From Burkholderia sp. HI2500 (lineage in GTDB: Bacteria; Pseudomonadota; Gammaproteobacteria; Burkholderiales; Burkholderiaceae), in the NCBI RefSeq assembly GCF_002223055.1, contig NZ_NKFL01000007.1, positions 124,001 to 188,000 of the forward strand: DNA of 64,000 bases, in the 5' to 3' direction. Positions 18,004-31,992 of the stretch are shown here, piece by piece. Positions within the stretch are counted from its first letter, which is position 1. Each line of letters begins with the position of its first letter. The translations under genes were made by a program, and so were the position numbers. The notes below the pieces were generated by a model that made no database searches, was not told where the DNA came from, and saw only the letters and a program-made list of their open reading frames with translations.

Positions 18004-19032
18004 ATGCAATCCGTGACGCGTCGTACCGTATTGAGTTCGCTTGCCGGCGCCGCTGCGCTGGCGATCCTCGCGCTGGGCGCACCGCTCGCGCATGCGAGCA
18101 AGGACAAACCTGAAATCGGCTTCTGCATCGACGACCTGCGCGTCGAGCGCTGGTCGCGCGATCGCGACTATTTCGTCGCGGCCGCGACGAAGCTCGGCGC
18201 GAAGGTGTCGGTGCAGTCGGCCGACGCGAGCGAGGCGCGGCAGATTTCTCAGATCGAGAACCTGATCTCGCGCGGCGTCGACGTGATCGTGATCGTGCCG
18301 TTCAACTCGAAGACGCTCGGCAACGTCGTCGCCGAAGCGAGGAAGGCCGGCATCAAGGTCGTGTCGTACGACCGGCTGATCCTCGACGCCGATGTCGACG
18401 CGTATATCTCGTTCGACAACGAGAAGGTCGGCGAGCTGCAGGCGCAGGGCGTCTACGATGCGAAGCCGAAGGGCAACTACTTCCTGCTCGGCGGCGCACC
18501 GACGGACAACAACGCGAAGATGCTGCGCGAAGGACAACTGAAGGTGCTGAAGCCGGCGATCGATCGCGGCGACATCAAGGTCGTCGGCCAGCAGTGGGTG
18601 CCCGAATGGAGCGCGTCGACCGCGCTGCGGATCACCGAGGATGCGCTGACCGCGAACAACAACCGGATCGATGCGATCGTCGCGTCGAACGACGGCACGG
18701 CCGGCGGCGCGATCCAGGCGCTCGCCGCGCAGCATCTGGCCGGCAAGGTGCCGGTGTCCGGGCAGGACGCGGACCTCGCGGCGGTCAAGCGCGTGATCGC
18801 CGGCACGCAGACGATGACCGTCTACAAGCCGCTCAAGCTGATCGCGAGCGAAGCCGCCAAGCTTGCCGTGGATCTCGCGAAGGGCGCGAAGCCCGCGTTC
18901 AACGCGCAATACGACAACGGCAGGAAGAAGGTCGACACGGTGCTGCTGCAGCCGACGCTGCTGACCAAGCGCAACGTCGACGTCGTCGTGAAGGACGGCT
19001 TCTATACCCAGGCGCAGCTGGCGAGCCAGTAA
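18004..19032 (+). CDS. xylF: D-xylose ABC transporter periplasmic binding protein
   Basis: This 342-residue protein has a signal peptide ([23 protein letters not shown], cleavage near residue 31). A ribose/xylose-binding fold follows: [23 protein letters not shown], then [35 protein letters not shown], and [18 protein letters not shown]. These are the XylF ligand-site segments. It delivers D-xylose to XylGH in the inner membrane. It is 123 bp downstream of xylB and followed by a strong hairpin before xylG, an arrangement common for binding proteins that must be made in excess. Confidence 0.95.
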
Positions 19033-19051
19033 GCGTACGACGGACGCGATG

Positions 19052-19076
19052 CGCGGCCGCCGCGACGGCGGCCGCG
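19052..19076 (+). terminator. Hairpin between xylF and xylG
   Basis: A ten-base perfect stem (CGCGGCCGCC pairing with GGCGGCCGCG) with a five-base loop starts 20 bp after the xylF stop. There is no T-run, so it is more likely an mRNA-stabilising or partial-termination hairpin than a full terminator. It would raise xylF message relative to xylGH. Confidence 0.6.
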
Positions 19077-19097
19077 TTGACTGCGAGGCAAGAACGA

Positions 19098-20657
19098 ATG
19101 ACGGAACCCTTGCTGACGATGCGCGGCATCGTCAAGACATTCGACGGCGTGAAAGCGCTCGACGGCATCGACCTCACCGTGCGGCCCGGCGAATGCGTCG
19201 GGCTGTGCGGCGAGAACGGCGCGGGCAAGTCGACGCTGATGAAAGTGCTGTCGGGTGTCTATCCGCACGGCACGTGGGACGGTGACATCCGCTGGGAAGG
19301 CGCGCCGCTCGCGGCATCCGGCGTGCGCGACACGGAGCGGGCGGGCATCGTGATCATCCACCAGGAGCTGATGCTCGTGCCCGAGCTGTCGGTGGCCGAG
19401 AACATCTTCCTCGGCAACGAGATCACGCTGCCGGGCGGGCGCATGCACTTCGCCGCGATGGTCCGGCGCGCCGAGGAACTGCTGCGCGAATTGCGGATCG
19501 ACTCGATCAACGTCGCGCAGCCGGTCATGAACTACGGCGGCGGCCACCAGCAGTTGATCGAGATCGCGAAGGCGTTGAACAAGGACGCGAAGCTGCTGAT
19601 CCTCGACGAACCGTCGTCGTCGCTGAGCGCCGCCGAAACGCGCATCCTGCTCGACATCGTGCGCGACCTGAAGCGGCGCGGCGTCGCGTGCGTGTACATC
19701 TCGCACAAGCTCGACGAAGTCGCGGCCGTCTGCGATACGGTCACCGTGATCCGCGACGGCCGTCATGTCGCGACCGAGCCGATGCGCGCGCTGACCACCG
19801 ACCGGATCATCGCGATGATGGTCGGCCGCGAGATTCGCGACCTGTATCCGCGCGAGCCGCACGAGATCGGCGAGGTCGTGCTGGAAGCGCGCAACGTGAC
19901 CTGTCGCGACGTGACGAACGCGCGCCGCAAGCGGGTCGACGACGTGTCGTTCAGCGTGCGGCGCGGCGAGATCCTCGGCGTGGCCGGGCTCGTGGGCGCG
20001 GGCCGCACCGAGCTGATGCAGGCGATCTTCGGCGCGTATCCGGGCGCGTGCACGGCGACCGTGCTGATGAACGGCCGGGTGCTGTCGATCCGCTCGCCGG
20101 CCGACGCGATCCGCGCCGGGATCGCGATGGTGCCCGAGGACCGCAAGCGCCACGGCATCGTGCCGCAGCTCGGCGTGGGCCACAACATCACGCTGGCGGT
20201 GCTGCGGCGTTTCGCGGCGCGCGGGCGGATCGACGCGGCCGCGGAACTCGATGCGATCCGCACCGAGATGCAGCGGCTGTCGGTGCGCGCCGCGCATCCG
20301 TTCCTGCCGATCGCGAGCCTGTCCGGCGGCAACCAGCAGAAGGCGGTGCTCGCCAAGATGCTGCTGGCCGAGCCGCAGGTGCTGATCCTCGACGAGCCGA
20401 CGCGCGGCGTCGACGTGGGCGCGAAGGTGGAGATCTACCGGCTGATCTTCGCGCTGGCGCAGCGCGGCGTCGCGCTGGTCGTCGTGTCGTCGGAGCTGCC
20501 CGAGGTGCTCGGGCTGGCCGATCGCGTGCTGGTGATCGGCGAAGGCGAGCTGCGCGGCGATTTCGTCAACGACGGCCTCACGCAGGAACAGATACTCGGC
20601 GCCGCGCTGAAGCCCGCGCGGCTGTCCACCGAACCCACCGCAATGAGCGCGACATGA
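19098..20657 (+). CDS. xylG: D-xylose ABC transporter ATP-binding protein
   Basis: The 519-residue protein has two ABC modules in tandem, as in all sugar ATPases of the RbsA/XylG class. The first has Walker [10 protein letters not shown], the unusual sugar-ATPase signature [14 protein letters not shown] and Walker [12 protein letters not shown]. The second has a degenerate Walker [11 protein letters not shown], signature [11 protein letters not shown] and [13 protein letters not shown]. Order and length fit XylG. The stop overlaps the xylH start by four bases. The start at 19098 follows an AAGAACG purine stretch. Confidence 0.95.
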
Positions 20658-21865
20658 ATTCCGAACTTTCTTCCTCGACCCCGGCGACGCCGGATGCCGA
20701 CGCGCAGCGTTCCGCCGGCCGCACGGCGCGGCTGCCGCTTCGCCAGATCTTCGCGCGCTACAAGCTGCTCGCGCTGCTGCTGGCGGTCGTCGTGATCTGG
20801 ACGTTCTTCTCGGTGCTGACGGACGGCGCGTTCGTCACACCGCGCAACGTATCGAACCTGCTGCGGCAGATGTCGATCACCGGCATGCTCGCGTGCGGGA
20901 TGGTGTTCGTCATCATCGCGGGCGAGATCGACCTGTCGGTCGGCTCGCTGCTCGGGCTGCTCGGCGGTGTTGCCGCGATCCTCGACGTCAACCGCCACTG
21001 GCCGGTCGCGGCGACGATCCCGGCCGTGCTCGCGCTCGGTGTGGTGATCGGGCTCTTCAACGGCTGGTGGTCGACCTATCGGCGCGTGCCGTCGTTCATC
21101 GTCGGGCTGGGCGGGATGCTCGCGTTTCGCGGGATCCTGCTCGGCGTGACGGGCGGCTCGACGATCGCGCCGGTGTCGGACGGCTTCGTGTTCATCGGGC
21201 AGGGCTATCTGCCGCGCCTGGTGGGGGACGGCCTCGCGATCCTGCTGTTCGGGCTCGTGTTGCTGCTGGTGGTGCGGCAGCGCGCGACGCGGCGGCGCTA
21301 CCGGCTCGCGGTCGCACCGCGCTGGCAGGACGTCGCGAAGATCGTCGGCGCCGGCGCCGTGCTGTTCGCGTTCGTCGCGACGCTCGACCGCTACGGCGGT
21401 ATTCCGGTGCCGGTGCTGCTGCTGCTCGTGCTGCTTGGCGTGTTCTCGTGGATCGCGACGCAGACCGTGTTCGGCCGGCGCATCTACGCCGTCGGCTCGA
21501 ACCTGGAGGCGACGCGGCTGTCGGGCGTCGATACCGACCGCGTGAAGCTCGCGATCTTCGCGCTGATGGGGCTGATGTGTGCGTTTGCCGGCCTGGTGAA
21601 CACGGCGCGGCTGGCGGCGGGGTCGCCGTCCGCCGGCACGATGGGCGAACTCGATGCGATCGCCGCGTGCTTCATCGGCGGCACGTCGATGCGCGGCGGG
21701 TCGGGCACCGTCTACGGCGCGCTGATCGGCGCGCTCGTGATGGCGAGCCTCGACAACGGCATGTCGATGCTGGACGTCGACGCGTACTGGCAGATGATCG
21801 TCAAGGGCGCCGTGCTGGTGCTGGCGGTGTGGATCGACGTGGTGTCGCGGTCGAACCGGCGGTGA
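20654..21865 (+). CDS. xylH: D-xylose ABC transporter permease
   Basis: The 403-residue permease has a hydrophilic N-terminus of about 30 residues, then ten or so membrane helices. Family segments include [30 protein letters not shown] (read across residues 72-101), [17 protein letters not shown] and [20 protein letters not shown]. Long XylH-type permeases differ from RbsC by an extra central region around residues 205-245, present here ([19 protein letters not shown]). It starts within the xylG stop codon region, so the two are coupled. Confidence 0.95.
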
Positions 21866-22710: not shown

Positions 22711-24201
22711 ATGAAGCGTCCGTCGTTTTCCACCCAACTCGTCATGCTCTGGGCACTCGTCGCGGCGCTGTGCGCGACGCTGGTCGCGGTCGTCTGGATC
22801 ACGGCGAGTTCCGCCGAGAGTCAGCAGGTCGCGAGCGCAAAGGCCGCCGGCGCGTCGGCCTGCGAAGCGGTCGCGTCGCGTTACAGCGCGTCTTCCGCGT
22901 CGCCGGGCGCCGGGCCCGCCCCGGAGCTGATGCATGCGATCCTCGACATCGTGCTCTCCCGTGCCCCCGACATGGAAGGCGGGTTCTGGATGCCCGGCGC
23001 CGCCCCCGCGGCAAGCGGCTTTCTCGCGTATTCCTTTCCCACCTACCAGGGCAGCGGCGTCAAACACGACGTACCGGAAGCGGAAACGCCGCTGATCCTT
23101 CGCACGCTGCGCGCCGCGGCCGCGACGCGTGCCGCGACCGCGAACGTCGTCGAAGGCGCGCAGGATGCCGTGGTCGCGGCGGCCTGCCCGGTACGCGGCG
23201 GATCGGGGCTGTACGTGTGGATGCTGACGCGTGCGCGCCCGCCGCTGGGCCGGCACGGCGAGTTGCTGGCCACGGGCCTCGCGGCCGTCCTCGCCGTGAT
23301 CCTGGCGATCGCGGCGGCGCTGGCCGTGGCGCTGCGCCGATGGAAGCGCAACCTCGCGCGGATCGAGAGCGGGCTGGGGCCCGACGGTCGCGAGCATCAT
23401 CTGCCGTACGTCGGCGAGCCCGATCTCGACCGCGTCATCGATGCGTTCAACGAGCGGGCGCGGCGCGCGGATCGGCTGCAGCAGCAGGCCGACGAACTGC
23501 GCACGCGCCTCGCGCAGGCCGAACGCTTCGGCATGCTGGGCAAGCTGGCCGCGCAGGTCGCGCACGAGATTCGCAATCCGATGGGCGCGATGCGGCTGAA
23601 GGCGGAAAACGCGCTGGCCGGCGATGGCCGGCGGCAGCAGGACGCGCTGCGCGTGATCCTCGCGCAGATCGAGCGCATCGATGCGCAATTGTCGAGCCTG
23701 CTCGCGCTGACGCAGCCGGTGCGCCCCCAAGCGACCCGGGTCGACGTCGACGCGTGGCTCGCGCAGGTCGTCGACGCGCACCGCGAGCTGGCGCAGCGGC
23801 AAGCGATCGACCTGACGCTGTCGCCCGCGGGGCAGGGCGAACGGCTGGCATGGCCGTCGGATCGTCCTGCTTTCGATCCCGACCAGATGCGGCGGGCGCT
23901 CGACAACCTGCTGCTCAACGCGCTGCACCACGCGGGCGACGGCGGTGCGGTCACGCTCGCCGCCGAGCGGCGCACCTTCGCCGGGCGCGACTGGCTGTGC
24001 CTCACCGTGTCGGACAGCGGCCCCGGCGTGCCGGCCGCGCAGCGCGAGCGGATTTTCGAGCCGTTCGTGACGGGCCGCGCGGAGGGCACGGGCCTTGGTC
24101 TGGCCGTCGTCCGCGAAGTGGCGGCGGCGCACGGCGGGCACGCGCGCCTCGACGGGGGCGCCGCATTCGTGATTGAAATTCCATGGCAAACATCCTCATA
24201 G
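22711..24201 (+). CDS. Membrane sensor histidine kinase, partner of an NtrC-type regulator
   Basis: The 496-residue kinase has an N-terminal membrane helix (about residues 8-31) and an extracytoplasmic sensor domain of roughly 150 residues with no recognised fold. A second helix follows (184-208), then a linker, a dimerisation/phosphoacceptor domain with His285 in AHEIRNPMGAMR, and a HATPase domain with the N box NLLLNALHH and glycine boxes DSGPGVP and GTGLGLAVVREVA. It should respond to a periplasmic signal and phosphorylate the regulator encoded immediately downstream. The coding regions overlap by 19 bases, so the pair is co-translated. The signal is unknown; the downstream operon suggests an exported or transported ion or metabolite. 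Confidence 0.92.
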   Translation: MKRPSFSTQLVMLWALVAALCATLVAVVWITASSAESQQVASAKAAGASACEAVASRYSASSASPGAGPAPELMHAILDIVLSRAPDMEGGFWMPGAAPAASGFLAYSFPTYQGSGVKHDVPEAETPLILRTLRAAAATRAATANVVEGAQDAVVAAACPVRGGSGLYVWMLTRARPPLGRHGELLATGLAAVLAVILAIAAALAVALRRWKRNLARIESGLGPDGREHHLPYVGEPDLDRVIDAFNERARRADRLQQQADELRTRLAQAERFGMLGKLAAQVAHEIRNPMGAMRLKAENALAGDGRRQQDALRVILAQIERIDAQLSSLLALTQPVRPQATRVDVDAWLAQVVDAHRELAQRQAIDLTLSPAGQGERLAWPSDRPAFDPDQMRRALDNLLLNALHHAGDGGAVTLAAERRTFAGRDWLCLTVSDSGPGVPAAQRERIFEPFVTGRAEGTGLGLAVVREVAAAHGGHARLDGGAAFVIEIPWQTSS

Positions 24202-25559
24202 TCGACGACGACGCGGCCTTTCGCGACAGCCTCGCGGAAACGCTCGCCGATCTCGGTCATCGGGCCGTCGAGGCGGCCTCCGGCCGCGCCGCGCTCAGCG
24301 CGCTGCGCGATGGCGATGGCGTCGAATGCATCTTTCTGGATTTCCGCCTGCCGGATCTGGACGGGCTGGCCGTGCTCGCGCAACTGCGCGACGCTCCCGC
24401 GCTGGCCGCGATTCCGGTCGTCATGCTGACGGCCCATGCGACCAGCGACAACACGATCGAAGCGATGCGGCTCGGCGCGTTCGATCACCTGACGAAGCCG
24501 ATCGGGCGTCGCGACATCGCGCAACTGCTCGAACGCATCGTGTCGGCGAATCAGCCGCCCGTGCGCGCGCCGGGCGACAGCGATTTCGCGGGCGAGCCGT
24601 CGGCGGACCGACCGCGGCTGCTGGGCGTGAGCGCCGCGATGCGCGACGTGCAGAAGCAGGTCGGCCGCGCCGCGATGAGCGACGCGACCGTGCTCCTGAC
24701 CGGCGAGACGGGCACGGGCAAGGAGGTGGCCGCCCGCGTGCTGCATGCGGCATCGGCCCGGCATGCGGGGCCGTTCGTCGCCGTCAACTGCGCGGCTATC
24801 CCGGCCGACCTGCTCGAAAGCGAGTTGTTCGGGCATCGTCGCGGTGCGTTCACGGGCGCGCATGCCGATCGCGCGGGGCGGCTCGTCGAGGCCGACGGCG
24901 GCACGCTCTTTCTCGACGAGATCGGCGACATGCCCGCCGCGATGCAGGCGAAGCTGCTGCGCGCGCTGCAGGAGCGCCAGGTGATGCCGCTCGGCGCGGA
25001 TCGCGCCACGGCGATCGACATTCGCGTCGTGGCCGCGACGCACCGCGACCTCGTCGCGGCCGTCGCGGACGGCACGTTCCGCGAAGACCTCTTCTATCGG
25101 CTGAACGTCATTCCGCTGCACCTGCCGCCGCTCGCGGAGCGTGTGGCCGACATCCTTCCGCTCGCCGCGCATTTCCTGTGCAACGCGGCAGGCATGCGCG
25201 CGCTGCATCTGACGAACGACGCCCAGCGCGCGCTGCTCGATCACCGCTGGCCGGGCAACGTGCGCGAACTGCGTAACGTGATGGAGCGGGCGGCCGCGCT
25301 CGCCCCCGGGCCGGCCATTGGCGCGGCCGATCTCGGCCTGGCCGCCGTGCCGGCGCGCGAGCCGCACGCCGATGCGGTGCCGGCGCACCTGCTCGACATG
25401 CCGCTGCCCGATGCACTGGCGACGGTCGAGCGCGCGGCGATTCTGCGCGCGCTCGAACGCGCGAACGGCAACCGCGCGGAAGCCGCGAGGCTGCTCGGGA
25501 TCGGCCGCCAGTCGCTCTATGCGCGCATGGCGAATCTCGGGATCGAGCGCGACGACTAG
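24183..25559 (+). CDS. NtrC-family sigma-54-dependent response regulator
   Basis: The 458-residue protein has three domains. The receiver (residues 1-120) has the acidic pocket DDD at 8-10, phosphoacceptor Asp53 in FLDFRLPD, Thr83 and Lys105. The AAA+ domain has Walker A GETGTGKE at 174-181, the sigma-54-contacting loop GAFTGA at 221-226 and Walker B GTLFLDEIGD. The Fis-type helix-turn-helix at the C-terminus reads NRAEAARLLGIGRQSLYARM. All residues needed for sigma-54 activation are intact. The intergenic region just downstream contains two identical palindromes and a consensus sigma-54 promoter, so the downstream operon is its likely target. Confidence 0.95.
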   Translation: MANILIVDDDAAFRDSLAETLADLGHRAVEAASGRAALSALRDGDGVECIFLDFRLPDLDGLAVLAQLRDAPALAAIPVVMLTAHATSDNTIEAMRLGAFDHLTKPIGRRDIAQLLERIVSANQPPVRAPGDSDFAGEPSADRPRLLGVSAAMRDVQKQVGRAAMSDATVLLTGETGTGKEVAARVLHAASARHAGPFVAVNCAAIPADLLESELFGHRRGAFTGAHADRAGRLVEADGGTLFLDEIGDMPAAMQAKLLRALQERQVMPLGADRATAIDIRVVAATHRDLVAAVADGTFREDLFYRLNVIPLHLPPLAERVADILPLAAHFLCNAAGMRALHLTNDAQRALLDHRWPGNVRELRNVMERAAALAPGPAIGAADLGLAAVPAREPHADAVPAHLLDMPLPDALATVERAAILRALERANGNRAEAARLLGIGRQSLYARMANLGIERDD

Positions 25560-25637
25560 GGCCTGTTCACGCTAATAACGGGCTTGCGAACGCGCGTTGC
25601 CGGTCGTAGTGCAAGGAGTGAGGCGCGCCGTTTCGAC

Positions 25638-25686
25638 TGTCGGGAATGCCGACATCCGGCGACGCGACGTGTCGGGAAATCCGACA
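25638..25686 (+). promoter_or_regulatory. Twin palindromic activator sites (likely UAS of the NtrC-type regulator)
   Basis: Two copies of TGTCGG-N5-CCGACA lie at 25638-25654 (spacer GAATG) and 25670-25686 (spacer GAAAT). Their centres are 32 bp apart, three helical turns, so both face the same side of the DNA. They sit about 85-120 bp upstream of the expected transcription start of the sigma-54 promoter at 25737-25752, the classical place for enhancer sites. The regulator gene ends 78 bp upstream. Confidence 0.8.
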
Positions 25687-25736
25687 GTTTTCGCGCGCGT
25701 CGTCGTTCGGCGCACGGCCACGCGGGGCGTCGCGGG

Positions 25737-25752
25737 TTGGCACGGGTATTGC
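25737..25752 (+). promoter_or_regulatory. Sigma-54 promoter (-24/-12)
   Basis: TTGGCACGGGTATTGC matches the consensus TTGGCACG-N4-TTGC at every position, with GG at 25739-25740 and GC at 25751-25752, exactly ten bases between. Transcription would begin near 25764. That excludes the in-frame ATG at 25761 as start of the next gene and supports the one at 25791. Confidence 0.85.
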
Positions 25753-25790
25753 GGATATCGATGCATCGCAACCCGTCGCCGGAGCCCGTC

Positions 25791-26567
25791 ATGAAGTCGT
25801 ACCTGCCTGTCGTTCGATCGCGGCCGCGGCGCCGTGCCGCCGTGCGCCGCTCGTCTCGCATGCTCTGCGCGGCCGCGCTCGTTGCCGTCGCAACGGTCAG
25901 CGTGGCGCAGGTGCCGCCCGCACCGCGCGCGGAAGATCCGGCCGGCGCCATGCCGCCGCCTGCTCCTCCTCGGCCTCGCGCACTGGTGCCTGCCGTGCCC
26001 GGAAACGACACCGCACGGCATGCGCTGGTGTCCGGCACGCTGTCGCGCCTGACGATCAACCCGGAAGGCGCCGTCGACGGCTTCGTGCTCTCCGACGGCA
26101 CGCTCGTCCGCCTGCCGCCGCATCTCGGTTCGCAACTGACTGCGCTCGTGAAGACGGGCGACCGTGTGACGGTCGCCGGCGATCGACGCGTCGACGATGA
26201 GATCCGTGCCCGTGTCGTCCGCAACGACGGCACCGGCGCGTCGCTGTCCGATCAGCCGCCCGCGCCCGTCGCACCCGTGCCGCCCATGCTGCGCGGCGTC
26301 AACCTCGCCCGCCTGAGCGTGTCCGGCGTCGTGCGCCGCGTGACGCGCGCGCCGCGCGGCGAGCCGGACGGTGTGATGCTCGACAGCGGCGCGATCGTCA
26401 AGCTGACCGTTCCGGCCGCCCAGCAATTCGGCGCGCTGCTCGTCCCCGGCGAGCGCGTGGCCGCGGTCGGCTACGGCACGCGCAACGCCTACGGCGAAGC
26501 GCTGCAGGCGACGGCGTTCGGCGCGCCGGGCCATGTCGTCAATCTCTATGACGATGTCGCGCGCTGA
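25791..26567 (+). CDS. Exported protein with two PPHL-type repeats, function unknown
   Basis: The 258-residue product begins with a very basic N-terminus and a hydrophobic segment (MLCAAALVAVATVSVAQ, residues 24-40), probably a signal peptide. A Pro/Ala-rich linker follows to about residue 75. Then come two related beta-rich units at roughly 80-145 and 177-245. The first reads VSGTLSRLTINPEGAVDGFV, then LSDGTLVRLPPHLG, then GDRVTVAG. The second is SGVVRRVTRAPRGEPDGVML, then SGAIVKLTVP and GERVAAVG. The same unit occurs twice in the next gene. It may be an OB-like fold, but I cannot name a family. The start is chosen from the sigma-54 promoter position and a GGAG ribosome binding site. Confidence 0.8.
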   Translation: MKSYLPVVRSRPRRRAAVRRSSRMLCAAALVAVATVSVAQVPPAPRAEDPAGAMPPPAPPRPRALVPAVPGNDTARHALVSGTLSRLTINPEGAVDGFVLSDGTLVRLPPHLGSQLTALVKTGDRVTVAGDRRVDDEIRARVVRNDGTGASLSDQPPAPVAPVPPMLRGVNLARLSVSGVVRRVTRAPRGEPDGVMLDSGAIVKLTVPAAQQFGALLVPGERVAAVGYGTRNAYGEALQATAFGAPGHVVNLYDDVAR

Positions 26568-26607
26568 GCGCGACGCCATTCCGAAACCCATCGAAAGGAG
26601 TCCTGCC

Positions 26608-27156
26608 ATGCATTGGATCGATCCCGCCTGCCTGCCCGAAACGCGCGGCCTCGTCACGCAGTTCCTGCTCAATCCGCACGGAGACATCGACGGCCTGATC
26701 CTGAACGGCGACCTGCAGGTGCACGTGCCGCCGCATCTGGGCCGCGAACTGGTGCGGCGTGTCGCGGTCGGCGACCGCATCCGCGTGCGGGGCGTCAAGC
26801 CACGTCGCGCGGCGATGATCGCGGCCGTGCAACTGACCGGCCGCGACGGCGTCGACATCGTCGACGACGGGCCCGCGCACGCTGCGCCGGCGAAGCCGAC
26901 GCACCCCACTCGCACCCCGCTGGAATCGAGCGGCGAAGTCGCGTTTGCGCTGCACGGCCCGAAAGGCGAGTTGAACGGCGCGTTGCTGACGAGCGGCGTC
27001 GCGTTGCGGGTGCCGCCGCATGCGGCTGAAGCGCTGCACGAGTATCTGCGTCCCGGTGTCCATGTGCAGGCGTGGGGGCACGGCGTCGTCACGCCGCACG
27101 GCACGACGCTCGACGTGAGCGAGATCGCCGAGCTCGTCGATGCGGATGCCGAATGA
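26608..27156 (+). CDS. Cytoplasmic protein with two PPHL-type repeats, function unknown
   Basis: The 182-residue protein lacks a signal peptide. It contains the unit seen in the preceding gene twice: about residues 12-78 (TRGLVTQFLLNPHGDIDGLI, then VHVPPHLG, then GDRIRVRG) and 107-176 (SGEVAFALHGPKGELNGALL, then LRVPPHAA, then GVHVQAWG). The order is always a beta strand, N/G-P-x-G-(D/E)-(I/L)-(D/N)-G, a hydrophobic strand, PPH, an amphipathic helix and a final G-x-x-(V/I)-x-x-x-G. An AAAGGAG ribosome binding site precedes the ATG, and the gap from the previous stop is 40 bp. The exported and cytoplasmic versions in one operon suggest a common ligand or partner on both sides of the membrane, but this is only inference. 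Confidence 0.82.
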   Translation: MHWIDPACLPETRGLVTQFLLNPHGDIDGLILNGDLQVHVPPHLGRELVRRVAVGDRIRVRGVKPRRAAMIAAVQLTGRDGVDIVDDGPAHAAPAKPTHPTRTPLESSGEVAFALHGPKGELNGALLTSGVALRVPPHAAEALHEYLRPGVHVQAWGHGVVTPHGTTLDVSEIAELVDADAE

Positions 27157-27177
27157 TCGTGCGACGCTGAGACGGCC

Positions 27178-28461
27178 ATGAGAGCGGCGCGCGCGCTCGA
27201 AGCGCTCAACTTCTTCCTCGCCGACGTGCAGGCCGGCATCGGCCCGTTCATCGGCGTCATCCTGCTGTCGCGCGGCTGGGGCGCCGATGCGATCGGCTCG
27301 GTCATGACGCTGGCCGGACTCGCCGCGATGGCCGCAACGCCGTTGGCCGGCGCGCTCGTCGATACGGTGCGCGCGAAGCGGGCGCTGATCGTCGTGGCGA
27401 CCGCGGTGACGGCGCTGGCGTCGCTGGCGATGAGGTTCGTCCACGGCTATCCGGCGGTGGCGGCGTCGCAGGTCGTGGCGGCGGTCAGCGGCGCGGTGCT
27501 GGCGCCGGCCGCCGCGGGCGTGACGCTCGGCATCGTGCGCCGGCAAGGTTTCGACCGGCAGTTCGGGCGCAACCAGATGGCGAACCACGCCGGCAACGTC
27601 GCCGGTGCGGCGCTCGCCGGGTGGCTCGGCTGGCATGTCGGATTCGACGCGGTGTTCGCGCTGGTCGGCGTGTTCACGGTCCTCGCCATTGTGAGCGCGC
27701 TGGCGATTCCCGGGCACTCGATTGATCACGCGTCCGCACGCGGTCTCGATCCCGCCGGTGCCGCACCGGGAATGGATGCTGCGCATCCGCATGCGTCGGA
27801 TGCGGCGTCGGCATCGGCATCGACATCGCCATCGCGCGTCGGCGGCCTGCGCACGCTCGCCGACAACCGGCCGCTGGTGCTGCTCGGCGCGTCGCTCGCG
27901 CTGTTTCATCTCGGCAACGCGGCGATGCTGCCGCTCTACGGGATGGGCGTCGTCGTCACGCATCGCAGCAACGCGAGCGCGTTCACCGCCCAGACGATCG
28001 TCATCGCGCAGTGCGTGATGATCGCGGCGGCGTGGCTCGCGCCCCGGCTGATTCGCGCGCACGGTTACTGGCGGGTGCTGCTGTTCTCGTACCTCGTGCT
28101 GCCGGTGCGCGGGCTGGTCGCCGCGGCGTGGCTGAGCGAAGCGGGCGTGTGGCCGGTGCAGGTGCTCGACGGCATCGGCGCCGGCCTGCAAAGCGTGGTC
28201 GTGCCCGCGCTCGTCGTTCACCTGCTGCATGGCTCCGGCCGCGTGAATGCCGGGCAGGGCGCCGTCGCGACCGCGCAGGGCATCGGCGCGGCGCTCAGTC
28301 CCGTGCTGGGCGGCGTGCTCGCGCAGCACTTCGGCTATCCGGCCGCGTTCGTCGTACTGGGCGCCGTGTCGACGGGCTCGCTCGCGCTGTGGCTCGGTCA
28401 TGCGCGCTCGCTGGGCCGCGTGTGCGGCAAGCCCGCCGATCTATCGGCGACATCGTCGTGA
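27178..28461 (+). CDS. Major facilitator superfamily transporter
   Basis: The 427-residue protein has about twelve hydrophobic helices in two halves. They are separated by a His/Asp/Ser-rich cytoplasmic loop near residues 180-222. The N-terminal half carries the MFS loop 2-3 motif in reduced form (GALVDTVRAKRALI). It starts 21 bp after the PPHL-repeat gene, so it belongs to the sigma-54 operon. The general layout is of drug/metabolite exporters, but the substrate cannot be inferred. The run of histidines and acidic residues in the central loop could bind metal, which is speculation. Confidence 0.88.
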   Translation: MRAARALEALNFFLADVQAGIGPFIGVILLSRGWGADAIGSVMTLAGLAAMAATPLAGALVDTVRAKRALIVVATAVTALASLAMRFVHGYPAVAASQVVAAVSGAVLAPAAAGVTLGIVRRQGFDRQFGRNQMANHAGNVAGAALAGWLGWHVGFDAVFALVGVFTVLAIVSALAIPGHSIDHASARGLDPAGAAPGMDAAHPHASDAASASASTSPSRVGGLRTLADNRPLVLLGASLALFHLGNAAMLPLYGMGVVVTHRSNASAFTAQTIVIAQCVMIAAAWLAPRLIRAHGYWRVLLFSYLVLPVRGLVAAAWLSEAGVWPVQVLDGIGAGLQSVVVPALVVHLLHGSGRVNAGQGAVATAQGIGAALSPVLGGVLAQHFGYPAAFVVLGAVSTGSLALWLGHARSLGRVCGKPADLSATSS

Positions 28462-28498
28462 AGGCGATGTCGATTTCCATGCCTCGATCCACTTGCCT

Positions 28499-29752
28499 AT
28501 GAATCCTGTTTCGCTTGCCTGGCTGATTTCCGCGCTCGCCACCGCGGGCGTCATCACGCGTCCGTTCGGCTGGCCCGAGGCCATCTGGGCCGTGAGCGGC
28601 GCGCTGCTGCTGGTCGTGTTGAACCTGTTGCCCGCGGCGCAGGCACTGGACGCCGTCGCGAAAGGCGGCGACGTGTACCTCTTCCTGACGGGCATGATGC
28701 TGCTGTCCGAGGCGGCTCGTCGCGAGGGGCTGTTCGACTGGGTCGCGACGCACGTCGTCAATCTCGCGCAGGGCTCGCCGCGGCGGTTGTTCGCGTTGAT
28801 CTACGGGGTCGGCGTCGTCACCACGGTGTTCCTGTCGAACGATGCGACCGCCGTCGTGCTGACGCCCGCGGTGCTTGCCGCCGCGCGCCGCGCGAAGGCC
28901 GACCCGATGCCGCAGCTGTACAGCTGCGCGCTCGTCGCCAATGCCGCGAGTTTCGTGCTGCCGATTTCGAATCCGGCGAACCTGGTGCTGTACGGTGCAC
29001 ACATGCCGGCGCTCGGCGTCTGGCTCGCGCACTTCGCGGCGCCGTCCGTCGCGTCGATCGTCTGCACGTTCGTGATGCTGCGGATCGTGCAGCGGCGTGC
29101 GCTGTCCGGCCGTTGCGAGTCCGGGCTGCCGGTGCAGCCGCTGACCAGCGGCGGCCGCATCGCGCTGGCGGGCATCGCCGCAACGGCCGTCGCGCTGATG
29201 GCGGTGTCGGTCGCCGATCGCCCGCTCGGGTTGCCCACCGCGCTGGCGGCCGTCGTCACGGTCGCGTGCGTGGCGATGCGGGATCGCGCGGCGTGCGTGC
29301 CGATCGTGCGCGCGATTTCATGGAGCGTGTTGCCGCTCGTCGCGGGGCTGTTCGTCGTCGTCGAGACGCTCGACCGGACCGGCGCGGTGCGCGCGCTGGC
29401 GGGCCTGCTGCACCTGCTGATGCAAAGCGGCGAGCACGTCGCGGCGGCCGTGGCCGGCGTCGCGGTCGCGCTGGTGTCGAACGCGGTCAACAACCTGCCC
29501 GCCGGGCTGATCGCGAGTTCGACGATCCACGCCGCGCACAGCCCGCAGACGGTGGTCGACGCGATTCTGATCGGCGTGGATCTTGGCCCGAACCTGTCGA
29601 TCACCGGTTCGCTCGCGACGATTCTGTGGCTGGCGGCGATCCGGCGCGAAGGGCTGCAGGTCGGTTTCCGCGCATTCCTCGCGGTCGGCGCGTGCGTGAT
29701 GCCGCCTGCGTTGCTGCTCGCGCTGGGCGCGCGGTTCGTGGTCGGCGGCTGA
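28499..29752 (+). CDS. ArsB/NhaD/SLC13-type anion or cation permease
   Basis: The 417-residue protein has ten to twelve membrane helices. Ion-transporter superfamily segments are present: GGDVYLFLTGMMLLSEAARREGLFDW, VVTTVFLSNDATAVVLTPAVL with the conserved SND-T motif, SNPANLVLYG, and in the second half SNAVNNLPAGLIASS and DLGPNLSITGSLATILW. The last motif is typical of arsenite pump ArsB-like proteins. No ars genes are nearby, so arsenite is not implied. It follows the MFS gene by 37 bp and is the last gene of the sigma-54 operon; its stop lies in a terminator hairpin. Confidence 0.88.
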   Translation: MNPVSLAWLISALATAGVITRPFGWPEAIWAVSGALLLVVLNLLPAAQALDAVAKGGDVYLFLTGMMLLSEAARREGLFDWVATHVVNLAQGSPRRLFALIYGVGVVTTVFLSNDATAVVLTPAVLAAARRAKADPMPQLYSCALVANAASFVLPISNPANLVLYGAHMPALGVWLAHFAAPSVASIVCTFVMLRIVQRRALSGRCESGLPVQPLTSGGRIALAGIAATAVALMAVSVADRPLGLPTALAAVVTVACVAMRDRAACVPIVRAISWSVLPLVAGLFVVVETLDRTGAVRALAGLLHLLMQSGEHVAAAVAGVAVALVSNAVNNLPAGLIASSTIHAAHSPQTVVDAILIGVDLGPNLSITGSLATILWLAAIRREGLQVGFRAFLAVGACVMPPALLLALGARFVVGG

Positions 29753-29776
29753 CGCGCGATGCGCGTCGCGTCAGCC
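29747..29776. terminator. Bidirectional terminator hairpin
   Basis: The 3' end of the permease gene and the following bases form a perfect ten-base inverted repeat, GGCTGACGCG and CGCGTCAGCC, with a ten-base loop (an alternative seven-base stem with a three-base loop is also possible). It lies between two convergent genes and can serve both. Confidence 0.65.
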
Positions 29777-29788
29777 GTCCCGGCCGCG

Positions 29789-31894
29789 CTAGAACGAGTA
29801 CGCGAGCGACGCGAACAGGCTGCGCGGCGCGCCCGGCGTGACCCACAGGCTGTTGTACGAGCTGACGTAGGTGGTGCGATTGAACAGGTTGTTCAGGACG
29901 ACCGACGCACGCAGGTGCTTGTTGACCTGCACGTAGCCGTTGAGCTGGACGGTCGCGTAGGCCGGCAGCTCGAAGCCGTCCTGCGTGTTGGCCGTGTTGC
30001 CGGCGCGGCGCCCGACATAGATCACGCCGGCGCCGGCGCCGGCCTTGTCCGCGAACGGCAGGGTCGTCTCGTACATCAGCAGCGCGCTGCCGCTCAGGCG
30101 CGGTATGTCGACGAGCCGCGCGCCGGGCGTCAGCACCGTATCGCGCGTGATTTCGGCATCGACGTACGCGAGGTTGACGAGGCCGCGCAGGCCGTGCCCG
30201 AGGTCGCCGCTCCATTCGAATTCGACACCGCGGCTGCGTACTTCGCCGGCCGCGCGCGAGAAGCCGGCATTCGCCGGATCGGCGGTCAGCACGTTGCGCT
30301 TGGTGACGTAGAACGCCGAAACGGTCGTGAGCGAGCGCGTGCTCGCCCATTTCGCGCCGGCTTCGTAGCCGTGGCCTTTCTCGGGATCGAACGCGTTGCC
30401 GCCGACGTCCGCGCCGTTGTTCGGCCGGAACGAATACGCGGTGTTCGCATAGAACGACCACGCCGGGCTCATTTCATACACGACGCCGAGACGCGGGCTC
30501 ACCGCGGTCTGCAGCTGGCTCGTCGTCACGCCCTTCAGGCGGTTGTCGATCGACTGGTGGAAGCGATCCCAGCGCAGCCCGGCCAGGATCTTCCAGTGCG
30601 GCCCGAACGCGAGCGTGTCCTGCGCGTAGACGCCTTGTCCGTTATCGCGTTCGAGCAGGTTGGTCGCGGTGCGCGGCGCGGGCGCGGGCTGGCCGTAGAC
30701 CGGATCGAAGATGTCGATCGCATACGGCGCCGCGGCGCTCGGCGTGGAGCGCGTGACGAACTGGTCGTAGTTGAAGCGATACGCGTCGACGCCCATCACG
30801 AGCGTATGGCCGATGCCGCCCGTGCGGAACGTGCCGGTGGTTTCGACGCGGCCTTGGAGGTCGTTCGAGTGAAACGCGACTTGCCGGTAGCGGCGCCACA
30901 GCGTGCGGCCGTCCGGCTGCAATGCGAATGCCTCGGACGAGCGCCCCGACAGGTCGGTGTTGCGTTGCGCGACGCCGGCATTGATCGACCAGCTGGAATC
31001 GATGCGGTGCTCGAGGGTGAACTGATGGCCCGTGTTGCGCACGTCGTAGTCGCCGTCGCGCGGCTCGCCGAGAAAGCGCGACGCGGGGATCACGCCTAGC
31101 TGGCCGTTGACCGCCAGCACGCCGCGATCGAGCGGCGCACGCTGCCGCGCGCTCTCGAATTCGTAGTGGAGCGTCGTGTCCGCGCCGATGTCCCACGTGA
31201 ACGACGGCGAGAACAGGTAGCGCTTGCTCGACACCGTGTCGCGAAAGCTGCCGTTGTTCTCGTTCATCGCGACGAAGCGGTACGCGAGCGTTTTCGTGAC
31301 GGGGCCGGTCGAATCGAGCGTCTGACGCAACGCGCCGTAGCTGCCGGCCGACACGCCGACGGTGTTCGCGCGGGCGAACTGCGGCTGCTTCGTCGTATAG
31401 CTGATGATCCCGCCCGGATCGCCGCGGCCATACAGCGCGGACGCCGGCCCCTTGAGCACTTCCATGCGCTCCAGGTTGACGGTGTCGCGCGGCACGCTCA
31501 TCCCGCGATTCCACGAAAAGCCGTTGACCAGGTAGTCGGTGCCGGACGTGTTGCCGTCGCCGGCGAAGCCGCGCACCGCGTAGTTGTCCCACAGGCCGCC
31601 GAAGTTGTTCTGGCGCGAGACGCCCGCGACCCAGTCGTAGAGATCGTCGCCGCGCGTGGCGGCCACCGTCTGGATCAGCTTCGTATCGACGCTGCTGACC
31701 GCGAACGGAATCTCCATCACGTCCGCCTCGCTGCGCGTCGCGCTCGTCGATTCGCGCGTGCGGAACGGCGCCGTCGCGCGTTGCGCGGACACCTCGATGG
31801 CGGGCAGCGCCGTTTCCTGCGCGTCGGCGGCGCCCATGCCGGCCGTGCCGACGACGATGGCCATCGGTGCGGCCGCCCAGTTCCTCCTGCTCAT
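29789..31894 (-). CDS. TonB-dependent siderophore receptor
   Basis: The 701-residue outer-membrane protein has a short signal peptide ending in ADAQ. A TonB-box-like ETALPAIEVSAQ follows, then a plug domain (SVDTKLIQTVAATRGDDLYDW, VRGFAGDG, LERMEVLKGPASALYGRGDPGG) and a long beta-barrel ending in the phenylalanine ASLAYSF. The RGF and LKGPASALYGRGDPGGIISY segments are typical of ferric-hydroxamate or ferric-mixed-siderophore receptors. There is no N-terminal signalling (STN) domain, so it does not act through a surface-signalling sigma factor. A Fur-box-like palindrome lies about 100 bp upstream, so iron limitation should induce it. No siderophore biosynthesis genes are in the window. Confidence 0.94.
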   Translation of the reverse strand: MSRRNWAAAPMAIVVGTAGMGAADAQETALPAIEVSAQRATAPFRTRESTSATRSEADVMEIPFAVSSVDTKLIQTVAATRGDDLYDWVAGVSRQNNFGGLWDNYAVRGFAGDGNTSGTDYLVNGFSWNRGMSVPRDTVNLERMEVLKGPASALYGRGDPGGIISYTTKQPQFARANTVGVSAGSYGALRQTLDSTGPVTKTLAYRFVAMNENNGSFRDTVSSKRYLFSPSFTWDIGADTTLHYEFESARQRAPLDRGVLAVNGQLGVIPASRFLGEPRDGDYDVRNTGHQFTLEHRIDSSWSINAGVAQRNTDLSGRSSEAFALQPDGRTLWRRYRQVAFHSNDLQGRVETTGTFRTGGIGHTLVMGVDAYRFNYDQFVTRSTPSAAAPYAIDIFDPVYGQPAPAPRTATNLLERDNGQGVYAQDTLAFGPHWKILAGLRWDRFHQSIDNRLKGVTTSQLQTAVSPRLGVVYEMSPAWSFYANTAYSFRPNNGADVGGNAFDPEKGHGYEAGAKWASTRSLTTVSAFYVTKRNVLTADPANAGFSRAAGEVRSRGVEFEWSGDLGHGLRGLVNLAYVDAEITRDTVLTPGARLVDIPRLSGSALLMYETTLPFADKAGAGAGVIYVGRRAGNTANTQDGFELPAYATVQLNGYVQVNKHLRASVVLNNLFNRTTYVSSYNSLWVTPGAPRSLFASLAYSF

Positions 31895-31992
31895 ACCCGT
31901 CCTTTTCCTTTTTTGTGTCGTTCGCGTTCGGGCACGGCGGGCGGCCTGGCGCCGGCATCTGTGTTCCAAACAGTACATTTGCGCGGCAATTT

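What the first reader, a model, noticed from the sequence alone, without database searches (positions are those of the whole stretch)
24183..29752. Self-contained sigma-54 circuit: NtrC-type regulator, twin identical palindromes, perfect -24/-12 promoter and a four-gene operon of unknown purpose
Seen directly: the response regulator has the GAFTGA loop needed for sigma-54. Just after its gene come two copies of TGTCGG-N5-CCGACA with centres 32 bp apart, then TTGGCACGGGTATTGC, a full sigma-54 consensus. Four tightly spaced genes follow (two PPHL-repeat proteins, an MFS transporter and an ArsB/NhaD-like permease) and end in a terminator. Established: NtrC-type activators bind paired palindromes about 80-150 bp upstream of such promoters. 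Inference: the kinase senses an envelope signal and switches on this operon, which looks like an undescribed transport or resistance system.
Basis: partly seen in the sequence, partly recalled or inferred. Interest (0 to 1): 0.82.

Follow-up and report, generated by a model that had tools for sequence, protein, structure and literature searches.

The report
Conserved sigma-54 switch for export genes
A Burkholderia-type bacterium carries a sensor and a regulator that appear to switch on, through a conserved DNA signal, an undescribed set of membrane transporters and one or two paired barrel-like proteins; the same signal and gene set recur in related soil bacteria, so the system looks real and testable, but what it moves is unknown.

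Summary
Two exact TGTCGG-N5-CCGACA dyads (25638-25654, 25670-25686) and TGGCACGGGTATTGC (25738-25752) lie between an NtrC-family regulator and four closely spaced genes; the claimed terminator is a hairpin without a T-run. Of 24 loci found by similarity to one operon protein (P2), 22 keep a -24/-12 site with TGTC-N9-GACA dyads at similar spacing. A DNA-only pattern hit 41 of 299 Burkholderiaceae genomes (reversed control 0); 39 of the 41 encode a P1/P2-family protein (65 of 299 do). Where transporter genes have moved, divergently or elsewhere in the genome, the promoter usually moved too. So this is a regulon wider than one operon, with relatives in Alphaproteobacteria. Relatives add a calcineurin-like phosphoesterase and a YdcZ-type exporter. 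The "ArsB" permease is not a canonical arsenite pump: it keeps the published metalloid contacts, but both members of the Asp148-Lys374 pair are Asn in 32 of 32 sequences counted. Best reading: a two-component sigma-54 switch for an inducible export system with double-barrel-like proteins on both sides of the inner membrane. Regulatory part about 0.9, export function about 0.55. Signal and substrate unknown; no bench data.

The parts
22711..24201 (+). HK: sensor histidine kinase, 496 aa, two hydrophobic membrane segments, about 145-residue periplasmic domain with two invariant Cys (C51, C159)
   Evidence: HisKA + HATPase_c; hydropathy segments 5-36 and 182-212; 17-sequence alignment
24183..25559 (+). 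RR: NtrC-family sigma-54 activator, 458 aa, REC-AAA+-HTH_8, GAFTGA
   Evidence: LGI(S/G)RQSLY of the C-terminal helix-turn-helix kept in 11 of 12 orthologues printed (Bradyrhizobium L026 has LGINRQLLY)
25638..25654 (.). distal enhancer dyad TGTCGG-N5-CCGACA
25670..25686 (.). proximal enhancer dyad TGTCGG-N5-CCGACA, starting 68 bp upstream of the -24 element
25737..25752 (+). sigma-54 -24/-12 promoter TTGGCACGGGTATTGC; start of transcription predicted near 25764
25791..26567 (+). P1: hypothetical protein, 258 aa, Sec-type signal sequence (by eye and hydropathy), proline-rich linker; predicted periplasmic
   Evidence: (no Pfam family)
26608..27156 (+). P2: hypothetical protein, 182 aa, no signal sequence; internal duplication, weak OB-fold match
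   Evidence: (PF01336 17.1 bits, cut-off 27)
27178..28461 (+). MFS transporter, weakly nearest to drug-efflux types
   Evidence: MFS_1 109 bits; TIGR00880 43.8 of 131 bits; NorA E=1.3e-4
28499..29752 (+). ArsB-like ion-transporter-superfamily permease with Asn148/Asn365 in place of the ArsB Asp148-Lys374 pair
29746..29777 (.). inverted repeat (11-base arms) at the end of the operon, no T-run
   Evidence: sequence printed; not called

Best explanation
This is a two-component, sigma-54-dependent regulon for inducible export. A periplasmic change or ligand is sensed by the kinase's conserved extracytoplasmic domain; the kinase phosphorylates the regulator (Asp53); the activated regulator binds the paired TGTC-N9-GACA enhancers at about -86 and -118 and, through its GAFTGA loop, opens sigma-54 RNA polymerase at TGGCAY-N5-TTGC. 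The genes switched on are P1 (secreted, periplasmic) and P2 (cytosolic), related double-barrel-like proteins that I propose bind or buffer the solute on the two sides of the inner membrane, plus an MFS exporter and an ArsB-like proton-coupled permease that remove it; relatives add a cytosolic calcineurin-like phosphoesterase and a YdcZ-type exporter. Shown by sequence: gene content, promoter anatomy, conservation, and co-movement of promoter and genes. Inferred: phosphorylation, binding, direction of transport, and the binding role of P1/P2.
For: Regulation: 22 of 24 loci found through P2 protein similarity carry a -24/-12 site upstream of P1 or P2 with at least one TGTC-N9-GACA dyad (up to 1 mismatch); 19 have the proximal dyad at 68-70 bp, 21 the distal one at 90-101 bp, 18 both. 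DNA-only pattern: 44 matches in 41 of 299 Burkholderiaceae genomes, reversed control 0. Of 42 matches examined (30, 12; the window's own included) 40 lie at genes of this system; the other two (G242, G037) lie 0.2-0.3 kb upstream of P1/P2-family hits. A P1/P2-family protein occurs in 65 of 299 and in 39 of the 41 motif genomes (Fisher p=5e-29, related species not corrected for). Divergent MFS or ArsB genes have their own dyads and -24/-12 in 4 of 5 cases among the 24 loci and in L145; unlinked copies carry the code in 4 genomes that have HK and RR (3) or at least RR (G071) elsewhere: L079, L082, L152, L147. Methylocystis L100 and Acidiphilium L102 show the same 22-bp dyad pair. Two rpoN genes are present. 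Export: ArsB-like permease with the metalloid contacts kept, MFS weakly like drug pumps, YdcZ 'putative inner membrane exporter', and no catabolic gene seen inside the annotated operons. P2 is an internal duplication (hhalign probability 96%, reversed control 0.3%).
Against: No expression, binding or transport data. The best Pfam hit of the permease is CitMHS (139 bits) rather than ArsB (81 bits), which would also allow uptake of an anion. Operon content varies: P1, P2, MFS or ArsB is missing in several loci. L018 has a -24/-12 site before its divergent genes but its only dyad is 149 bp away. In L148 and L072 the nearest dyads are at about 80 and 101-102 bp, not 68 and 90. L147's promoter has one dyad only, with one mismatch. 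Two motif hits (G130, G182) lie at no recognisable member (a 42% identical NtrC-type regulator lies about 4 kb from the G130 site). L014, L015 and nine further orphan P2 copies have no such promoter. Bradyrhizobium L101 has a -24/-12 site but no dyad was found. The OB-fold assignment of P1/P2 is below Pfam's cut-off, and no structure could be predicted.
Confidence: 0.6

Rival explanations
1. Arsenite or antimonite resistance operon: the permease is an ordinary ArsB and the kinase senses As(III).
For: Best solved match is ArsB; metalloid-contacting Asn111, Asn158, Asn337 and Ser380 and proton-coupling Asp112 are kept (roles from passages of PMC13381914); database records name it 'arsenic transporter'. 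It is the only TIGR00935 match in this genome.
Against: Far below the ArsB curated cut-off (131 of 415 bits). Asp148 and Lys374 are both Asn in 32 of 32 counted; in the paper Asp148-to-Asn and Lys374-to-Met impaired resistance. No arsR, arsC, arsH or arsA is among the annotated neighbours in the 16 plasmid regions read. An ArsB-only operon does not explain P1, P2, the phosphoesterase or YdcZ.
Confidence: 0.15
2. Organic-acid or anion uptake circuit like DctBD: the kinase senses an external anion and the permeases import it.
For: CitMHS is the best Pfam hit of the permease; sigma-54 two-component control of transporters is classical (DctBD, recalled); the Methylocystis and Bradyrhizobium records call the corresponding gene 'anion transporter'.
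Against: DASS model score is low (47 of 199 bits). The pocket keeps ArsB's Asp112 and Asp370, which the paper says Na+-dependent DASS transporters lack. No catabolic gene was seen inside the annotated operons. MFS and YdcZ look more like exporters.
Confidence: 0.2
3. Envelope-stress response like ZraSR or QseEF, in which the periplasmic P1 is a stress protein and transport is secondary.
For: P1 or P2 is present in the HK-RR loci read, whereas transporters are more often missing, and P1 is secreted; kinase and regulator score next to AtoS/ZraS and NtrC/AtoC/ZraR/GlrR; the site TGTC-N9-GACA resembles the QseF consensus TGTCN10GACA.
Against: All those equivalog cut-offs are missed by a wide margin; the spacer differs by one base; P1 itself is missing in some loci (for example L011, L144, L148); three kinds of transporter travel with the regulon.
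Confidence: 0.2

Closest known systems
NtrC-family two-component systems (NtrBC, AtoSC, ZraSR, QseEF/GlrKR)
   Same: REC-AAA+-HTH_8 regulator with GAFTGA, partner kinase, upstream dyads, -24/-12 promoter
   Different: Below the cut-off of each of the 25 best NCBIfam models listed for HK and for RR; own enhancer TGTC-N9-GACA, mostly paired 22 or 30-32 bp apart; controls P1/P2 and transporters
QseF/GlrR enhancer sites TGTCN10GACA
   Same: Same half sites TGTC and GACA, NtrC-family regulator, sigma-54 promoter
   Different: Spacer 9 instead of 10; regulator 344 bits against a cut-off of 763 for GlrR; different targets
ArsB arsenite/antimonite efflux pump (LfArsB, PDB 10tp; PMC13381914)
   Same: Nearly full-length alignment, E=4e-36 with the profile; Asn111, Asp112, Asn158, Asn337, Asp370 and Ser380 positions kept in the window protein
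   Different: Asp148 and Lys374 positions are both Asn; TIGR00935 131 of 415 bits; different operon context
MFS - metallophosphoesterase - 'arsenic transporter' cassette of Sphingomonas and Aureimonas
   Same: Same transporter pair and phosphoesterase side by side
   Different: No HK/RR pair of this type, P1 or P2 annotated next to it and no dyad-promoter found; no published function found in the searches made

Membership tests
NtrC-family sigma-54 activator (response-regulator type) | REC + sigma-54 AAA+ + HTH_8 domains over Pfam cut-offs | tested here: met
   89.8, 236.1 and 48.9 bits
NtrC-family sigma-54 activator (response-regulator type) | GAFTGA loop, Walker A, phospho-acceptor Asp | tested here: met
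NtrC-family sigma-54 activator (response-regulator type) | Activation of a sigma-54 promoter in the cell | not testable with these tools
   needs reporter and deletion strains
Sigma-54 promoter with paired enhancers | GG-N10-GC element and dyads upstream, conserved in orthologous loci | tested here: met
   22 of 24 loci, 18 with both dyads;
NtrC proper (TIGR01818) | equivalog cut-off | tested here: not met
   405.5 of 558.6 bits
ZraSR | equivalog cut-offs of ZraR and ZraS | tested here: not met
   353.3 of 760; 133.7 of 479 bits
QseEF/GlrKR | GlrR equivalog cut-off and TGTCN10GACA site | tested here: not met
   344.3 of 763 bits; spacer is 9, consensus from a passage
ArsB arsenite pump | curated model cut-off (TIGR00935) | tested here: not met
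   131.2 of 415 bits; 130.7 in the genome search
ArsB arsenite pump | metalloid-contacting Asn111, Asn158, Asn337, Ser380 and proton-coupling Asp112 | tested here: met
   32 of 32 distinct sequences counted, mapping, roles
ArsB arsenite pump | Asp148-Lys374 salt bridge | tested here: not met
   Asn and Asn in 32 of 32
ArsB arsenite pump | arsR/arsC-type neighbours | tested here: inconclusive
   none among annotated neighbours of 16 plasmid regions read, not all of which hold the regulon; other loci were not annotated for this
DASS sodium-anion symporter | TIGR00785 cut-off | tested here: not met
   47.4 of 198.6 bits
OB-fold proteins (P1, P2) | Pfam OB-fold model over cut-off | tested here: inconclusive

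The most novel reading that the evidence does not exclude
A chemically specific export machine of a new type: twin double-barrel proteins, one on each side of the inner membrane, capture a small neutral (possibly metalloid-like or phosphorylated) solute and hand it to an ArsB variant whose Asp148-Lys374 pair became Asn-Asn, together with an MFS and a YdcZ exporter, all under a dedicated sigma-54 enhancer code (TGTC-N9-GACA pairs two or three helical turns apart) shared by Alpha- and Betaproteobacteria.
Probability: 0.25. Interest if true: 0.72.

Novelty: new variant of a known kind. Interest (0 to 1): 0.52.

Why it matters
It proposes a regulator, a DNA code and a target set for a protein family with hundreds of members (457 hits for P2; 1447 for a P1 homologue) that are called hypothetical or uncharacterized wherever a source names one of the 120 listed in each call, and for an 'arsenic transporter' subfamily that is probably misnamed. 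The promoter code is specific enough (39 of 41 hit genomes hold the protein family) to find regulon members by DNA alone, and it gives a case of enhancer spacing changing by about one helical turn (22 against 32 bp) while the proximal site mostly stays fixed. One reporter fusion and one deletion would make signal and substrate directly testable.

Tried and rejected
Chance palindromes: rejected, because position, spacing and sequence recur in divergent genera and a reversed pattern gives no hit in 299 genomes.

NtrC, ZraSR and QseEF membership, ArsB membership and DASS membership: tested and not met (see the membership table).

Sequence searches of solved structures gave nothing useful for the P2 profile (best E=0.11, a proteasome subunit, judged chance) or the sensor profile (0 hits).

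Literature: seven searches for the operon, its genes or its promoter showed no description in the listings seen; two searches found 98 and 73 papers, of which 25 and 15 were listed. Searches were for the QseF site and the ArsB structure. Passages searched for gene names in four papers: PMC5979394, PMC2830190, PMC5209427, PMC2559838: nothing on this system. PMC8745638: one passage. PMC13381914: abstract, outline and passages.

In-frame stop codons reported for P2 copies of four genomes of one genus: no internal stop appeared in the local alignments; the flagged codon may be the natural stop. Dropped.

Anchored promoter profile: the -24/-12 columns are conserved partly by construction, because rows were anchored on found elements; 27 of 30 rows were kept after removing near-identical ones. 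The less biased figure is 22 of 24 loci chosen by protein similarity. The pattern was itself drawn from the spacing seen in those loci, so it is blind to genes but not independent of the loci.

The loci and the genomes overlap: L005, L006 and L008, for example, have the same coordinates as G032, G155 and G063. Such pairs are counted once within each count above, but the 24-locus and the 299-genome figures are not independent.

Permease count: only distinct sequences aligned over at least 330 residues at E 1e-20 or better were counted, with or without the regulon nearby. More remote homologues (L155, 24% identity; the one between RR and P1 in L075, read by eye) were not counted.
Full report
THE OBSERVATION. 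The window is part of an 8.26 Mb genome (G000:C7:124001-188000) whose closest named relatives by P2 are Burkholderia puraquae and B. contaminans (both cepacia-complex species, recalled). Genes: kinase HK 22711-24201, regulator RR 24183-25559, P1 25791-26567, P2 26608-27156, MFS 27178-28461, ArsB-like 28499-29752. RR has receiver, sigma-54 AAA+ and Fis-type domains, GAFTGA and Asp53. Both dyads and the promoter are exact. The two dyads are the only zero-mismatch copies in the listing for the genome. The hairpin after the last gene lacks a T-run.

CONSERVATION TEST. P2 was used as bait because it has no known family. Twenty-four loci came back, in Burkholderia, Caballeronia, Paraburkholderia, Trinickia and Bradyrhizobium. 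HK and RR lie beside P1 and/or P2 in 20 of 24; L014, L015 and L025 lack both, and L019 shows only a C-terminal RR piece near its contig end. P1 was not found in L011. Upstream of P1 (or of P2 in L011), 22 of 24 have -24/-12 elements with TGTC-N9-GACA dyads, up to one mismatch: proximal dyad 68-70 bp from the -24 in 19, distal at 90-101 bp in 21, both in 18. L014 and L015, with P2 alone, have none at that place. Dyad-to-dyad distance is 31-32 bp in Burkholderia, 30 bp in Bradyrhizobium L026 and 22 bp in Paraburkholderia and Caballeronia, while the proximal site stays put: a shift of about one helical turn. Exceptions outside the 24 are L148 and L072, whose nearest dyads lie at about 80 and 101-102 bp.

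DNA-ONLY TEST. The pattern TGTC-N9-GACA-N50-53-TGGCAY-N5-TTGC, no mismatch, gave 44 matches in 41 of 299 Burkholderiaceae genomes; the reversed pattern gave none. I examined 42 of the 44 by tblastn (30 loci, 12 more): 40 sit at genes of this system, the window's own match included; G130 and G182 do not. The other two (G242, G037) lie 0.2-0.3 kb upstream of P1/P2-family hits. The P2 search found a family member in 65 of the same 299 genomes (in a few, such as G055, G190, G195 and G249, the hit is P1-like only, and G225 is a fragment), and in 39 of the 41 motif genomes (Fisher p=5e-29, relatedness not corrected). The strict pattern thus misses 26 genomes; of those looked at some carry only orphan P2 copies and some a site with mismatches.

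THE PROMOTER FOLLOWS THE GENES. In five of the 24 loci MFS, with or without ArsB, is turned round and lies upstream of HK (L017, L018, L021, L024, L028). Four of them have their own dyad(s) and -24/-12 on the other strand with the proximal dyad at 67-71 bp; L018 has the -24/-12 site but its dyad is at 149 bp. In L145 ArsB alone is divergent and has its own pair of dyads. In four genomes an unlinked locus carries the code: L079 (a short P1-like frame, phosphoesterase, MFS, ArsB), L082 (phosphoesterase, ArsB), L152 (P1, phosphoesterase, MFS, ArsB) and L147 (P1, P2; one dyad with one mismatch); HK and RR lie elsewhere in three of them (L080, L081, L148), and at least RR in G071 (L041). This argues that MFS, ArsB, phosphoesterase, P1 and P2 belong to one regulon and are not accidental neighbours.

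REACH. More distant HK-RR-P1 or -P2 loci were found in another genus of the family (L155, L156), in other families of the order and class (L073-L075, L098, L072), in a second class of the phylum (L096, unnamed) and in named Alphaproteobacteria (Methylocystis L100, Bradyrhizobium L026 and L101, Acidiphilium L102). L100 (two promoters) and L102 have dyads at 91 and 69 bp, each with one mismatch or none, before TGGCAC-N5-GTGC or -ATGC. In L073-L075 the -12 ends in GA instead of GC and a single dyad was found. L101 has a -24/-12 site without a dyad. Frequencies in evenly drawn samples, the window's own genome included where it belongs: 9 of 398 genomes of the phylum, 5 of 337 of the second class (three of the five are P-like proteins without HK/RR beside them in L076-L078), 5 of 300 of the order.

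THE PROTEINS. P2 is built of two related units (57 aligned columns, hhalign 96%, reversed control 0.3%); P1 is about 31% identical to it over 160 residues. P1 has a secretion signal, P2 has none, so the pair would straddle the inner membrane. Invariant residues of 55 sequences, mainly P2, include Asp28 and Pro41-Pro42-His43. The kinase's periplasmic part has invariant Cys51 and Cys159 and the blocks EGG-x-W and PTY-x-G-x-G-x-K-x-D-x-P in 17 sequences. The extra genes in relatives are a calcineurin-like phosphoesterase (PF00149; nearest solved chains are a 'Phosphohydrolase', E=3e-8, and Rv0805/Icc at about 5e-4; that these are phosphodiesterases is recalled) and a YdcZ-type exporter (PF04657 in Paraburkholderia D15 and Methylocystis) that follows the permease there and, as an annotated DMT transporter, in Caballeronia M1242.

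THE 'ARSENIC TRANSPORTER'. Passages of a 2026 structure paper (PMC13381914) give the metalloid contacts Asn111, Asn158, Asn337, Ser380, the coupling Asp112, and a salt bridge Asp148-Lys374 whose loss impairs resistance. Mapped by the profile alignment, all contacts and Asp112 are kept, but Asp148 and Lys374 are both Asn, in 32 of 32 distinct permeases of the fetched loci that aligned over at least 330 residues; Asp370 is kept in 31 of 32. The window protein is below the ArsB cut-off, and the genome has no other TIGR00935 match. So it has an ArsB-like chassis but should not be filed as ArsB.

HOW IT MOST LIKELY WORKS. Shown: anatomy, conservation, regulon membership by promoter co-movement. Established knowledge (recalled): NtrC-type activators bind paired dyads and remodel sigma-54 polymerase through GAFTGA. 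Inferred: a periplasmic signal, phosphotransfer, export as the outcome. The export reading rests on up to three transporter types with no catabolic gene seen inside the annotated operons, and on the ArsB-like pocket. Uptake of an anion, arsenite resistance and a general envelope response remain open rivals.

NOVELTY. The regulatory architecture is a known kind. The enhancer code, the target set and the P1/P2 pair are not described in the listings and passages seen (open-licence PubMed Central only, so other papers could hold it). I rate it a new variant of a known kind, interest 0.52.

Noticed in passing
G000:C5:610678-611145 and G000:C7:524024-524488: Two sigma-54 genes (PF04552 225 and 195 bits) in one genome, one on the same contig as this system; which of them serves this promoter is open.
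   Followed up: no
29792-31978 (-): TonB-dependent siderophore-type receptor convergent with the operon; it lies next door in L005-L009, a piece lies further off in L010, and it was not matched in the other loci.
   Followed up: partly
L099 4920-8556; L105 2943-7828; L104 4581-7117; L108 5028-7462: MFS, metallophosphoesterase and 'arsenic transporter' occur together in Sphingomonas and Aureimonas, and MFS with arsenic transporter in Acetobacter and Novosphingobium, without P1, P2 or the HK/RR pair annotated beside them: perhaps a transporter cassette that this regulon recruited (a guess).
   Followed up: partly
L014, L015, L140-L143, L150, L151, L153, L154, L157: Orphan P2 copies without P1, HK/RR or the promoter code (L150 has an MFS gene beside it); in L015 two small proteins nearby look like a paired chromate-type transporter (my reading, not tested by Pfam).
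   Followed up: no
L076 6441-7205: A secreted two-unit P1-like protein beside what look like ATP synthase F0 genes (my reading, no family search) in a 2 Mb genome; similar P hits in two genomes of the same genus (L077, L078), whose neighbours were not read.
   Followed up: no
L103 12499-13077; L100 3762-4457: A short CHASE3-only protein near the regulon in both Paraburkholderia D15 and Methylocystis, a possible extra sensor part.
   Followed up: no
18004-21865: Sugar ABC transporter-like frames upstream of the kinase (not family-searched here); the same place in Burkholderia stagnalis is annotated as D-xylose transport.
   Followed up: no
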